64,000 nucleotides of DNA from Candidatus Chloroploca asiatica (lineage in GTDB: Bacteria > Chloroflexota > Chloroflexia > Chloroflexales > Chloroflexaceae), in contig NZ_LYXE01000170.1 of NCBI RefSeq assembly GCF_002532075.1, positions 62,001 through 126,000 of the forward strand, given 5' to 3'. The notes beneath the pieces are model-generated. The model did no database searches. It saw only the letters and a list, made by a program, of their open reading frames with translations, and was not told the origin of the DNA. A program made the translations under genes and the position numbers. Of the stretch, positions 3,062 through 7,086 are shown piece by piece; position 1 is the stretch's first letter; each line of letters opens with the position of its first letter.

Positions 3062-3220
3062 ATGCAAAGTGTGATCAATCTCTTTCCGCTTATCTTGCTC
3101 GGGGTGATGTGTCTGTTGACCTTCATCCTCTTACCTTTAACCCGGGAAGAGACGCCGTATAGGCAAGAGGAACGCCAGCGTACTGATCGTTTGAAGGTAC
3201 CAGTGCGTGATGAGACTTAG
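3062..3220 (+). CDS. Small single-pass membrane protein, unknown function
   Basis: 52 residues: a hydrophobic helix covers roughly residues 5-26 (VINLFPLILLGVMCLLTFIL), followed by a strongly charged tail rich in Arg, Glu and Asp. ATG at 3062 is chosen for the GGAGG 7 nt upstream; a longer frame from 3005 lacks such a site. The stop lies 22 nt before the nitronate monooxygenase start, so the two probably share a transcript. I do not recognise the family. The layout resembles small inner-membrane accessory proteins, but nothing fixes a function. Confidence 0.6.
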   Translation: MQSVINLFPLILLGVMCLLTFILLPLTREETPYRQEERQRTDRLKVPVRDET

Positions 3221-3242
3221 TTGTATTGGCAGGAGAGAAGCT

Positions 3243-4661
3243 ATGTCAGCAGCGTCACTGCCTCCAATTATTCAAGGGGGAATGGGCGTCGCAATTTCGG
3301 ATTGGCGACTCGCCCGCGCCGTTGCACGCTGCGGTCAACTGGGGGTCGTCTCGGGGACGGGGGTTGATACGGTGTTGATGCGGCGGCTGCAGGATGGCGA
3401 TCCTGGCGGGCATATGCGTCGTGCTATGGCGCAGTTTCCGATGCCCCATGTCGTCGAGCGGATGCTCGAACGCTATTTTCTGCCGGAAGGCCGCCCCCCT
3501 AACACACCTTATGCCCTTTTGCCGATGTTTCGGCAAGAGACACCGCGTGCCCGCCAGGAGATCGCGATGCTCGGGGCTTTCGTTGAGGTGACGTTGGCGC
3601 GCGAGGGTCATCAGGGGCCGATTGGCATGAACCTGTTGACCAAGGTGCAATTGCCTAATCTCCCGATGCTCTATGGGTCAATCCTGGCTGGGGTTGATGT
3701 GGTTTTGATGGGGGCGGGCATTCCCCGTGATATTCCTGCGGCCCTTGATGCCCTGGCCCTTCATCAGCCTGCGACGATTGCCTTTGATGTCGAGGGGTTG
3801 GCGGCGGGGGCCAATGCGTTGCTGCGCCTTGATCCAGGTGAGTACTGGGAAGGCCCCAAGCCGACGTTGCGTCGCCCCGCTTTTTTGGCAATTATTGCGA
3901 GTAATTCGCTCGCAACGATGCTGGCGCGTAAGGCGAGTGGCCGCGTTGATGGGTTCGTTGTGGAAGGCCCGACCGCCGGCGGTCACAATGCGCCCCCCCG
4001 CGGCGAAATGCAGTTGAACGAGGAGGGTGAGCCAGTCTATGGCCCCCGTGATGCGGTTGACCTCGCGAAGATCCGTGAGCTTGGCTTGCCCTTCTGGGTC
4101 GCCGGTGGCGTTGGTACCCCCGAGGGCTTGCGGCAAGCCCAGGCTGCCGGGGCGGTTGGCATTCAAGTGGGCACCCTCTTTGCGTTTTGTGAAGATTCGG
4201 GCCTTGCTCCTGAATATCGAGCTTCGATTCTGACCGCTGCGGTGCGTGGTGAAGTGCAGGTACGTACCGATCCGCGTGCGTCACCGACCGGGTATCCCTT
4301 TAAGGTGGTGCATTGGTCAGACGATCCGGCGGCTGAAAAACCGCGCGAACGCATCTGCGACCTCGGGTATTTGCGCTCGGCCTATGTAACACCTGAGGGT
4401 GAGATTGGGTTCCGCTGCGCCAGTGAGCCGATTGCTGCGTTTGTGCAAAAAGGTGGGGCTGTCGAAGAGACCGAGGGGCGTAAGTGCCTCTGCAATGCGC
4501 TGATGGCCAATGTGGGCTTTGCCCAACGGCGCCGCGATGGCAGCATCGAGCCGCCTCTCTTGACGAGTGGCGACGATTTGCAGCATATTGGTGCCTTCCT
4601 CGGGGGGCGCACGAGCTACACAGCCGGTGATGTGATTGATTATCTGCTCGGTGAGCGTTGA
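3243..4661 (+). CDS. Nitronate monooxygenase / 2-nitropropane dioxygenase-like flavoenzyme
   Basis: 472 residues with an FMN-binding TIM barrel. It opens PPIIQGGMGVAISDWRLARA, the N-terminal flavin loop of the NMO/FabK family. The catalytic-His region reads VEGPTAGGHNAPP, and the phosphate-binding loops WVAGGVGTPEGL and GAVGIQVGTLFAF follow. Such enzymes oxidise alkyl nitronates or reduce quinones with FMN. It is longer than the common 320-350 residue form; the extra C-terminal part carries a Cys-rich KCLCNALMANVGFAQ segment seen in a long subgroup. ATG 3243 has AGGAGAG 6 nt upstream. The physiological substrate is not deducible. The end of the gene forms the 5' arm of a hairpin (4641-4679). 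Confidence 0.85.
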   Translation: MSAASLPPIIQGGMGVAISDWRLARAVARCGQLGVVSGTGVDTVLMRRLQDGDPGGHMRRAMAQFPMPHVVERMLERYFLPEGRPPNTPYALLPMFRQETPRARQEIAMLGAFVEVTLAREGHQGPIGMNLLTKVQLPNLPMLYGSILAGVDVVLMGAGIPRDIPAALDALALHQPATIAFDVEGLAAGANALLRLDPGEYWEGPKPTLRRPAFLAIIASNSLATMLARKASGRVDGFVVEGPTAGGHNAPPRGEMQLNEEGEPVYGPRDAVDLAKIRELGLPFWVAGGVGTPEGLRQAQAAGAVGIQVGTLFAFCEDSGLAPEYRASILTAAVRGEVQVRTDPRASPTGYPFKVVHWSDDPAAEKPRERICDLGYLRSAYVTPEGEIGFRCASEPIAAFVQKGGAVEETEGRKCLCNALMANVGFAQRRRDGSIEPPLLTSGDDLQHIGAFLGGRTSYTAGDVIDYLLGER

Positions 4662-4679
4662 ACGCTCACTGAGCAGATA
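4641..4679 (+). terminator. Palindrome whose 5' arm is the 3' end of the preceding gene
   Basis: 17-bp stem (one G-T wobble), arms 4641-4657 and 4663-4679, loop TTGAA. The 5' arm encodes the last residues of the nitronate monooxygenase and the stop codon (4659-4661) begins in the loop. It likely separates this gene from the convergent fused reductase. Confidence 0.7.
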
Positions 4680-4699
4680 GGCAAGACCGCGCCCTTACA

Positions 4700-6919
4700 T
4701 TAACGACGAACTTCTTCGTCACGGTTGGGTTGGGGCAGGCGACGGCTGATCTGGCTTCCAAGCGCCATGGCACCCTGGATCGTCCATTCGCGTACCTGGG
4801 TGCTAGCCTGGTGCCAGACCGATTCTTGCACGCCTTTCGCCGCTTTGGGCAGGCGCTGCAGTTTTTCGTGTGCCTCGGCCTGGGTGCGCTTGAACAGTGC
4901 AGGATCGGCGTGTAGACGGGCGGCAAGCGCACGTCGTTGCGCAAAATCCTCCTCGGTTACATACACTTCGAATGACCGCAAGCCGGCCAATTGAAAGTTG
5001 TGTTTCTTGAAGAGCCGGTAGATCTCCTTGACCCGCTCGATCGAAATATTGCGCCCGAGCGTATAGTCCTCGAAGCGTCCATCCATAGCAAGCAAGGCGG
5101 TTTCGGCAAGACAGGCGTACGCGGTGCCACGGGGCAGGCCAATGTCGTAGCCGATGTCGGTGACGCCCGGAATCAAGACCTCACCGCTCTCGATCACAAG
5201 CACATCCGGCCTGAGCGCGGCTTCGGCGGGGCTGATATCAGGTGGGCGCGCCACATCGCAGATCACGGCACCGGGTTTGCAGCGGCTAATATCAATAATG
5301 CGCTGCCCAAAAGCCGAGGTTGCCGTCACAATCAGATCACACTGCTCTACCATATCTTCCGTATGGGTCGCAATGACCACCCGCGAGCCGGGGGTTTCTG
5401 CTTCGATTGCACGTTTCAGGGCGATCAGCTTTTCGGGCTCGATCGAGACCAGTACTACATCATGAATCGCCTGCGCCAGCAGACGTGCACAGACCGACCC
5501 GATCGAACCGGTTGCCCCGATGATCATCGCTCGTCCGTGGGCAAGATCCGTCGCTCCCATCTTGATCACGGCCTGTTTGGCCGCTTCGAGGGTGGCCGCG
5601 ACCGTCAAACTATTGCCACTGGTGATCGCTATCTCGGCTTCGTGGGCCACCGTAATGCCAGCGTCGCCAACAACACTGGTAAACGCACCGAGGCCCATCA
5701 GGCGTGCGCCGAGGCGTTCAGACATCCGGGCGGCGATATTCAACTGGCGATAGGTAAACCGCTCGTGGTGGCGCATCATCTGGCGTGGGGTTGCCCCCAG
5801 GCTGATCAAGTGACCTTCGATCCGTTGATCCGTGGTGGGCGAGACTCCGCCCTTGATCTTGCCCAGATAGAGGGGCGGGAAATAGGCCGCCACAGCCTCC
5901 ACCAGACTATCAGGGAGATAGCGTGTCCAGCGAAACAATTTGTGCTGATGGATGAACTTCACGTTCAGTGGGTGGATGACAAAAGCAAAACGATTGATCC
6001 CTGCTTCACTTGCTTGCAACGGATAGACCGAGGGGGTCCAGTTCAATTCGGCCAGCAGATCAAGATACGTATCTTCGCGGAGGGGGGCATCGGGCGAGGG
6101 GCGTAGCGCGACGAGGGCGGCCTCGATAGCCGCCGCCGAGCTATGCCGTGGATCAGCCCCTTCAAGCAGTGCATCGAAGAGCGCAACCACCAGCGAAACC
6201 CCTCGGTCGCGCAAGTCAGCGCGATCTTCTTTGGTCACAGCGGTTGTCACCACAAGTTTGTGTTTGAGGTCGCGGGGGGCCCAGCGCCGGATCAGATCAA
6301 CATCACCGGCAAGCACATCGGCCCAGCGGAACTGGGCCGCTGCACGACGACCACCATTCGTGACCGTCGGATGCGCAAGCTGGGCAAAGCTGAGTTCGCG
6401 CAGACGGTCAAGGGTTGGCCCAGCCAGGCTATCGAGGGTGATACGACTCCCGATCCCAGGTAGGGCCGGCACCCCAAAATAGAGCACCGGATCGGCATAA
6501 CGGACGGCCCCGACGCGACGATCAAGCGCATGGCTGAGGCCTTCGTGGTTGAGGCCAGGCACCATCAGCACGCGTTTCTGGCTGAAGATGCCGGGTTGAG
6601 CTTTCTCGACCAAGGTCACGGCCCAGCGTTCGAGCATCGCCCGTGCCCCGCTGCCATCCACCGTGGGCGTATGGTGCGCCGCTGTCAGCAGCCGTTGACC
6701 AGGTGGATAGGCCCGGCTCGCATTGCCCAGGCGTAAACGGCCAGGCATCCCTTCAAGACCAATGGCATCTACCTGTCCATCGTGCGCGAGAATCAACTCA
6801 CGGGCCTGATCAAGATCACCGGCACACCCGATGCGGCGCATCGTTATCGCCTGCCCTAACAGTTTGACCGTAAGCTGCTCATCACCTCGACCCGGATGAA
6901 TAATCACGATCGTTTTCAC
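4700..6919 (-). CDS. Two-domain protein: quinate-5-dehydrogenase-annotated-like N-domain fused to a long-chain acyl-ACP reductase (AAR)-like C-domain
   Basis: 739 residues (numbered from GTG 6919; AGG lies 5-6 nt upstream; GTG 6925 is the alternative). Residues ~1-300 resemble a Firmicutes family that databases call quinate 5-dehydrogenase, with no catalytic proof I know of: a [16 protein letters not shown] segment, [28 protein letters not shown]. Residues ~308-655 match cyanobacterial acyl-ACP reductase: nucleotide loop [16 protein letters not shown] (about 467-482), and [19 protein letters not shown], whose Cys602 aligns with the AAR acyl-thioester Cys, then [23 protein letters not shown] reduces acyl-ACP/CoA to aldehyde with NADPH. 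The C-terminal ~85 residues are charged and helical. I infer an aldehyde-forming or related thioester reductase. No aldehyde-deformylating oxygenase is nearby, so alkane synthesis is not implied. Confidence 0.75.
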
Positions 6920-7086
6920 AGACACCTCATTGTATGTAAGCGGCCGACTCTCCAGCGTCGACCATATAGACGTATACCATCAAGCGTAACTGGTCGTATG
7001 TGGCTCAGGTGACGCCTATACCCGCTATATTGTACCCTCATTATCAACTTCTTGCGCAAGCGGGGCTGTTGCTTGCCAGACAAAAT

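What the first reader, a model, noticed from the sequence alone, without database searches (positions are those of the whole stretch)
4700..6919. Fusion of a quinate-5-dehydrogenase-annotated family to an acyl-ACP-reductase-like enzyme
The C-domain keeps the AAR nucleotide loop and the acyl-thioester Cys (Cys602), features typical of cyanobacterial aldehyde formation. It is covalently joined to a ~300-residue domain of a family usually annotated as quinate 5-dehydrogenase with little evidence. The pairing suggests that the N-domain supplies, binds or senses the acyl substrate, and that its database name may be wrong. I do not know of a characterised fusion.
Basis: partly seen in the sequence, partly recalled or inferred. 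Interest (0 to 1): 0.65.

Follow-up and report, generated by a model that had tools for sequence, protein, structure and literature searches.

The report
Fatty-acyl reductase with conserved partner domain
The gene fuses an enzyme that probably turns activated fatty acids into fatty aldehydes with a poorly named partner protein that many other bacteria encode right next to that enzyme, making it a good candidate for the unidentified step that supplies fatty alcohols for waxes in these bacteria.

Summary
ORF 4700-6925 (-), more probably starting at GTG 6919, is a real two-domain protein; the Cys is 605 (603 from the inner start), not 602. The C half (~308-675) belongs to the acyl-ACP reductase (AAR)/PigE-type thioester reductase superfamily: Z 33 to AAR and TAD against 14 for the next entry; Cys in 108 of 112 C pieces, the rest being one Ala and three fragments. 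The N half has no Pfam or NCBIfam match. Its confident model is closest to AAR itself (Z 12.1-12.8; next 9.6), but sequence comparison does not support homology. N looks like a Cys-less AAR-fold partner, not a quinate dehydrogenase. The two are a pair: in Bacillota they are adjacent genes, N then C, in 103 of 131 genomes entered with C. Both trees allow one fusion event, then paralogues A (window; tail-anchored in most species) and B. In one sister genus a wax ester synthase gene overlaps the end of A by 4 bp in 3 of 3 genomes. Best reading: a fatty-acyl reductase module feeding wax ester or fatty alcohol synthesis; the role of N is inferred. New variant of a known kind.

The parts
4700..6925 (-). 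Fusion A open reading frame, 741 aa from GTG 6925; likely start GTG 6919 (739 aa)
6014..6919 (-). N domain (residues 3-304), AAR-like fold by structure, invariant D49, G50, G91, D145; lacks the Cys and the GxxGxxG loop
   Evidence: model pLDDT 92.7, Z 12.8, conservation in 133 N pieces
4901..6004 (-). C domain (residues 308-675), acyl-thioester reductase of the AAR/PigE superfamily
   Evidence: NF053554 6.6e-52 and TIGR04058 1.2e-16, both far below their cut-offs; Z 33
5498..5518 (-). GATGSIG nucleotide-binding loop (residues 470-476)
5111..5113 (-). Cys605, aligned with the catalytic Cys of AAR (Cys294) and PigE (Cys296); those two numbers come from papers
4703..4900 (-). C-terminal tail of paralogue A (676-741): KGV linker and helix; in most A proteins a hydrophobic segment plus basic end (tail anchor), eroded in this genus
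   Evidence: 17-residue Kyte-Doolittle maximum 0.21 here; 1.41-2.45 in 19 of the 21 full-length A rows
4641..4679 (.). Near-perfect inverted repeat between the convergent genes, probably a shared terminator; it overlaps the last codons of the + gene and no T-run was called
   Evidence: MFE of 4630-4705 -32.3 kcal/mol, z -4.9; not called by the pattern scan
3207..4661 (+). Convergent neighbour, nitronate monooxygenase/PfaD-like; no relative seen next to the fusion in the other contexts, so not taken as part of the system
   Evidence: PF03060 7.6e-18

Best explanation
The protein is a two-part fatty-acyl-thioester reductase. The C half takes a long acyl chain from acyl-ACP or acyl-CoA onto Cys605 and reduces it with NAD(P)H held at GATGSIG, releasing a fatty aldehyde (chemistry inferred from AAR, PigE and TamH; conserved residues and fold shown here). 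The N half is a dedicated partner with an AAR-like two-lobed fold but no Cys and no glycine loop. It most likely docks on the reductase and handles the aldehyde or acyl chain in its own acidic cleft, as ADO or an aminotransferase does for other AAR-type enzymes (inferred). The product, as fatty alcohol, goes mainly to wax esters: in a sister genus the gene is coupled to a wax ester synthase. Most paralogue A proteins look held at the membrane by a C-terminal anchor, which this genus has largely lost.
For: C half: PDB profile hits PigE 9.7e-60 and AAR 2.6e-47; Z 33 to AAR/TAD against 14 for the next; Cys in 108 of 112 pieces. The TamH and PigE papers report AAR-type reductase domains with a conserved Cys (passages: PMC9594044, PMC8341465). 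N and C as a unit: the fused group is one side of a branch in both trees (support 99 for N, 76 for C); N then C on the same strand, gap 11-180 nt, in 103 of 131 Bacillota genomes entered with C; C found in 24 of 25 genomes of named N-bearing loci. Wax: WS/DGAT overlaps the end of A by 4 bp in 3 of 3 sampled genomes of genus g4; in the order, WS/DGAT in 4 of 7 genomes with A and 0 of 22 without. Elimination: no decarbonylase (PF11266) above cut-off in 301 genomes; in the order, HMGR (parent family of FcrA) is single-copy in 57 of 60, double in 1, absent in 2; strong PF07993 hits (over 150 bits; the domain of FarA and AcrB, as I recall) are absent from Chloroflexus, this genus, g4 and Roseiflexus G166. 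Roseiflexus and Chloroflexus wax esters are reported (passages PMC4400912, PMC12542760). Lipid link elsewhere: AAR domain fused to PlsY (PF02660) in 3 of 3 Meiothermus.
Against: This genus (G000, G253, G260) has A but no WS/DGAT, and the window neighbours give no pathway link. Chloroflexus has only B and no WS/DGAT. Outside g4 none of the fusion contexts I held has WS/DGAT, though several were short; Roseiflexus has one about 30 kb away. The WS/DGAT test ignores shared ancestry. In f13 the lone AAR gene lies in a signalling cluster. No sequence-level support for N being an AAR relative: hhalign score 14.6 against a shuffled mean of 16.4. The structural alignment of N is loose (rmsd 4.5-5.1). 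No activity has been measured here, and purified PtTamH gave no product with C12-CoA (passage).
Confidence: 0.5

Rival explanations
1. N is a second catalytic site: it reduces the aldehyde to alcohol, so the fusion is one alcohol-forming reductase.
For: D49, G50, G91 and D145 invariant in 133 of 133 N pieces and E268 in 131, more like an active site than a dead scaffold; WS/DGAT needs alcohol.
Against: The GxxGxxG dinucleotide loop is not kept; no NAD(P)-binding family matches N.
Confidence: 0.25
2. N is a purely structural or regulatory pseudo-subunit that stabilises or controls the reductase.
For: AAR-like fold without Cys or loop; fused and gene-pair forms both occur.
Against: N also occurs away from C, often in two copies per genome in f13, next to PAP2 and NTP-transferase genes or an SCP2-like gene, which suggests a function of its own.
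Confidence: 0.25
3. The fatty alcohol is for bacteriochlorophyll c (stearol) or ether lipids rather than for wax.
For: BChl c of Chloroflexus-type bacteria is mainly esterified with stearol (PMC9066304, passage); B is present in the Chloroflexus genus g3 and in this genus.
Against: A and B also occur in Roseiflexus, and B in Herpetosiphon, which as I recall lack BChl c; WS/DGAT is coupled to A only.
Confidence: 0.25
4. The reductase acts on a polyketide-like or other special thioester, as in prodigiosin or tambjamine synthesis.
For: Best NCBIfam match is PigE; the nearest fold includes TAD, annotated as part of an adenylation-domain protein.
Against: No assembly-line or aminotransferase gene among the fusion neighbours that I annotated; P0001 has no aminotransferase domain.
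Confidence: 0.1
5. It is an ordinary quinate or shikimate dehydrogenase fusion.
Against: That hit is in the Rossmann region of the C half only; C aligns along its whole length with AAR at Z 33 while shikimate dehydrogenases reach about 13.
Confidence: 0.02

Closest known systems
Cyanobacterial acyl-ACP reductase (AAR; TIGR04058; PDB 6jzq, 6jzy)
   Same: Fold of the C half (Z 32-33), GxxGxxG loop, catalytic Cys position
   Different: 61 bits against an equivalog cut-off of 449.7; fused to an N partner; no decarbonylase above cut-off in the sampled phylum
PigE and PtTamH (thioester reductase plus class III aminotransferase)
   Same: Fusion of an AAR-type domain to a partner that can use the aldehyde; conserved Cys
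   Different: Partner is not an aminotransferase; PigE score 176.9 against a cut-off of 850
TAD of the carmabin pathway (PDB 9e4s and others; known to me from PDB titles only)
   Same: Fold of the C half, Z 33; best fold match of the N half too, Z 12.8
   Different: Annotated as part of an amino acid adenylation domain protein; 18% identity
Fatty acyl reductases of wax ester makers: FarA, AcrB, FcrA (PMC11948995, passages)
   Same: Proposed role: fatty alcohol precursor for WS/DGAT
   Different: Different families; strong hits or extra copies were not seen in Chloroflexus, this genus, g4 or Roseiflexus G166
deino9.00587 family, 'annotated as quinate 5-dehydrogenase' (PMC9425974, passage)
   Same: Possibly the N family (present in Thermus group, function unknown)
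   Different: Not matched by sequence here

Membership tests
AAR/PigE-type thioester reductase superfamily (C half) | Catalytic Cys at the AAR Cys294 position | tested here: met
   108 of 112 C pieces; exceptions L151 (Ala) and three fragments of L126
AAR/PigE-type thioester reductase superfamily (C half) | GxxGxxG nucleotide loop | tested here: met
   GATGSIG in the window and in 84 of 112 pieces; other variants listed
AAR/PigE-type thioester reductase superfamily (C half) | AAR fold over the whole domain | tested here: met
   Z 31.6-33.2, 324-347 residues aligned, next entry Z 14.1
AAR/PigE-type thioester reductase superfamily (C half) | Thioester reduction to aldehyde | not testable with these tools
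   needs an assay
Cyanobacterial AAR proper (TIGR04058 equivalog) | Score above the equivalog cut-off | tested here: not met
   61 bits, cut-off 449.7
Cyanobacterial AAR proper (TIGR04058 equivalog) | Partner aldehyde-deformylating oxygenase (PF11266) | tested here: not met
   0 of 301 genomes above cut-off, 5 weak matches below it, none in the window's order; control Synechococcus elongatus rings
PigE/TamH (aminotransferase-thioester reductase) | Class III aminotransferase domain in the same chain | tested here: not met
   no PF00202 in P0001
Quinate/shikimate dehydrogenase (N half) | Match of the N half to PF01488 or shikimate dehydrogenase models | tested here: not met
   P0001 hits only at 458-571; lone N proteins: 0 families in Pfam (L034) and in NCBIfam (L139, L113, L128, L034)
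AAR superfamily (N half) | AAR-like fold | tested here: met
   Z 12.1-12.8, 231-259 residues aligned, next entry 9.6; rmsd 4.5-5.1
AAR superfamily (N half) | Sequence homology to AAR or to the C half | tested here: inconclusive
   hhalign E 0.44, score within shuffles, though colinear over 211 columns; no AAR or TAD hit in the PDB profile search
AAR superfamily (N half) | Catalytic Cys | tested here: not met
   Asn 64, Asp 34, Ala 33, Ser 1, gap 1 of 133 at the hhalign-equivalent column
FarA/AcrB fatty acyl-CoA reductase | PF07993 domain | tested here: not met
   absent from the P0001 Pfam table

The most novel reading that the evidence does not exclude
The N-C pair is a previously unrecognised two-component fatty-acyl reductase, built from two AAR-fold proteins (one catalytic, one Cys-less), widespread as a gene pair in Bacillota and other phyla, fused once in Chloroflexota. 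It makes the fatty alcohols for wax esters (and perhaps BChl c stearol) in wax-forming bacteria that lack FarA, AcrB and FcrA.
Probability: 0.3. Interest if true: 0.75.

Novelty: new variant of a known kind. Interest (0 to 1): 0.55.

Why it matters
Wax esters of Roseiflexus and Chloroflexus are used as hot-spring biomarkers (passages in PMC4400912, PMC12542760), and I found no paper in the held library naming their fatty-acyl reductase. A 2025 paper reports FarA, AcrB and FcrA in 1%, 31% and 26% of bacteria with WS/DGAT, which leaves room for other reductases (PMC11948995, passage). This fusion is a concrete, testable candidate. It also gives a first functional lead for a widespread family with no Pfam or NCBIfam match: the gene next to it is an AAR-type reductase in 103 of 149 Bacillota genomes entered with N.

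Tried and rejected
Homology of N and C by sequence: hhalign on two pairs of alignments gave scores at or below shuffled and reversed controls; only the colinearity over about 211 columns and the structure match point to kinship, so I claim a shared fold, not proven descent.

Window neighbours as pathway clue: the PfaD/nitronate monooxygenase-like gene and the S8 peptidase give no pathway link and the former has no relative in the other contexts, so they were set aside.

The PDB sequence search with the N profile gave only chance hits (E 0.07 and worse). Foldseek alone gave TM-scores (query-normalised) of 0.24-0.47 in the 50 rows shown; AAR was not among those rows, TAD was at rank 16. Other families listed at Z about 9 (glutamate dehydrogenases, malic enzymes, sugar-binding proteins) share a common two-lobed arrangement and are not excluded as relatives.

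Name of the N family: tblastn on annotated plasmids found nothing. PF03982 wax synthase search in 31 relatives: 4 weak matches just over cut-off, none in this genus.

Counts to read with care: one search used the matches printed; both print-outs were truncated, and I left out the printed C rows below about 187 bits (mostly fragments in long frames, such as the aminotransferase fusions), so 103 of 131 refers to the 133 C rows that I entered. Of 149 genomes with N entered, 32 had no C entered. The 112 C and 133 N pieces contain some loci fetched twice.

Full report
What is there. The ORF at 4700-6925 (-) codes for 741 residues. Homologues start at the inner GTG, 6919. Residues 3-304 form the N domain, 308-675 the C domain, and 676-741 a tail. 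Cys605 and GATGSIG (470-476) lie in the C domain. The genome also holds a paralogue, B, 51% identical. A near relative is Candidatus Chloroploca sp. Khr17 (97% in the N domain), so the window probably comes from that genus.

C domain. Pfam sees only weak Rossmann hits, Shikimate_DH being best at 1.2e-5. NCBIfam gives PigE 6.6e-52 and AAR 1.2e-16, both well below their equivalog cut-offs. A profile of 29 C domains finds PigE at 9.7e-60, AAR at 2.6e-47 and TAD at 1.5e-12 in the PDB. In the full-length model (mean pLDDT 84.3, pTM 0.70) the C half matches TAD and AAR at Z 31.6-33.2; the next entry is at 14.1. The Cys is kept in 108 of 112 C pieces; the others are L151 (Ala) and three fragments of L126. 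This is an AAR/PigE-type thioester reductase domain, though not an orthologue of cyanobacterial AAR, and there is no decarbonylase above cut-off in 301 genomes of the phylum.

N domain. It has no Pfam or NCBIfam match. The family is broad: of 476 confirmed stretches one search kept the best 80 loci, from Chloroflexota, Bacillota, Armatimonadota, Deinococcota, Actinomycetota and others. The model is confident (pLDDT 92.7, pTM 0.92). Among 1000 Foldseek-ranked chains, the best nine entries are TAD and AAR, Z 12.1-12.8 over 231-259 residues, and the tenth is at 9.6. The alignments are loose (rmsd 4.5-5.1 A), and sequence profiles give no support: hhalign score 14.6 against a mean of 16.4 for 40 column shuffles. 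N lacks the Cys (Asn, Asp or Ala at the equivalent column) but keeps D49, G50, G91 and D145 in 133 of 133 pieces and E268 in 131. My reading is an AAR-fold partner with a site of its own.

N and C are a pair. Of the 53 loci L109-L161, all but L151 carry separate N genes, and many have C directly downstream. In Bacillota the usual order is dus, a small HTH protein, N, C, greA, lysS. Over 249 genomes of that GTDB phylum N is found in 187. Of 131 genomes with a C row that I entered, 103 have N upstream on the same strand, 11-180 nt away, median 30. Of 25 genomes of named N loci, most chosen because C was not adjacent, 24 still have a C match. The fused rows are one side of a branch in the N tree (support 99) and in the C tree (76), as one fusion would give, followed by duplication into A and B. 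L151 from a Myxococcota MAG is a fused but long-branched copy that lost both Cys and loop.

Where the product goes. In genus g4 of the same family a WS/DGAT gene (PF03007/PF06974) overlaps the end of A by 4 bp in all three sampled genomes. In the order, 4 of 7 genomes with A and 0 of 22 without A have WS/DGAT; in the phylum sample it is 6 of 9 against 22 of 292 (relatedness not corrected). The window's own genus has no WS/DGAT. B is followed within 200 nt by an alpha/beta-hydrolase in 16 of 26 distinct loci. Known fatty acyl reductase families are not evident in Chloroflexus, this genus, g4 or Roseiflexus G166: best PF07993 scores there are about 43 to 69 bits against 196 to 221 in Herpetosiphonaceae, and HMGR, the parent of FcrA, is single-copy in 57 of 60 genomes of the order. 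Wax esters are reported for Roseiflexus and Chloroflexus (passages). A is the simplest candidate for Roseiflexus; for Chloroflexus only B is available.

Membrane link. In 19 of 21 full-length A rows the tail has a hydrophobic 17-residue stretch (Kyte-Doolittle 1.41-2.45), mostly followed by a basic end; the window (0.21) and one Oscillochloris row (0.27) do not; B proteins end 12-27 residues from aligned position 672. Most A proteins therefore look tail-anchored. In Meiothermus the AAR domain is fused to PlsY, a glycerol-3-phosphate acyltransferase, in 3 of 3 genomes, which again places AAR-type domains in lipid synthesis.

Shown and inferred. Shown: the fusion, the AAR residues of C and its fold in the model, the N-C pairing, the WS/DGAT overlap in g4. 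Supported: AAR-like fold of N, membrane anchoring of A. Inferred: aldehyde chemistry, alcohol product, wax ester role in the window's genus, and what N does.

Noticed in passing
L067:5198-19899 and seven similar loci (L045, L046, L048, L063, L065, L066, L068): Lone AAR-like gene of Chloroflexota sits in a signalling cluster: DUF4388 protein, MglA/Ras-like GTPase, alpha/beta-hydrolases, V4R protein, response regulator with GGDEF, and a ~2,470-aa multi-GAF histidine kinase.
   Followed up: partly
L162:3418-5325, L185-L187: AAR domain fused to a PlsY-type glycerol-3-phosphate acyltransferase (PF02660) in three of three Meiothermus genomes.
   Followed up: partly
L042:8018-10567; L165, L166, L167, L168: AAR domains fused to class III aminotransferases, in both orders, in Chloroflexota and Bacillota.
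   Followed up: no
L139:6462-6992 and 18 relatives: Small HTH protein (~176 aa, no Pfam family at 1e-4) conserved just before N-C in Bacillota, a likely regulator of the pair.
   Followed up: no
L113:8001-10667 and similar loci: In Desulfotomaculum relatives N is followed by an SCP2-like lipid-binding protein and an amino acid permease while C is elsewhere in the genome.
   Followed up: no
L034:9548-12096: Lone N genes of Chloroflexota next to a MobA-like NTP transferase and a PAP2 phosphatase.
   Followed up: no
L151:1-1989: Myxococcota MAG copy of the fusion that has lost both the catalytic Cys and the nucleotide loop, apparently a double pseudoenzyme.
   Followed up: partly
L088:8850-11421: Thermoflexales fusion A followed by an SDR/epimerase-like protein and a PlsC-type acyltransferase.
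   Followed up: no
L126:8004-10119: Herpetosiphonaceae KatS3mg057 copy is broken into several short frames, probably sequencing errors or a pseudogene.
   Followed up: no
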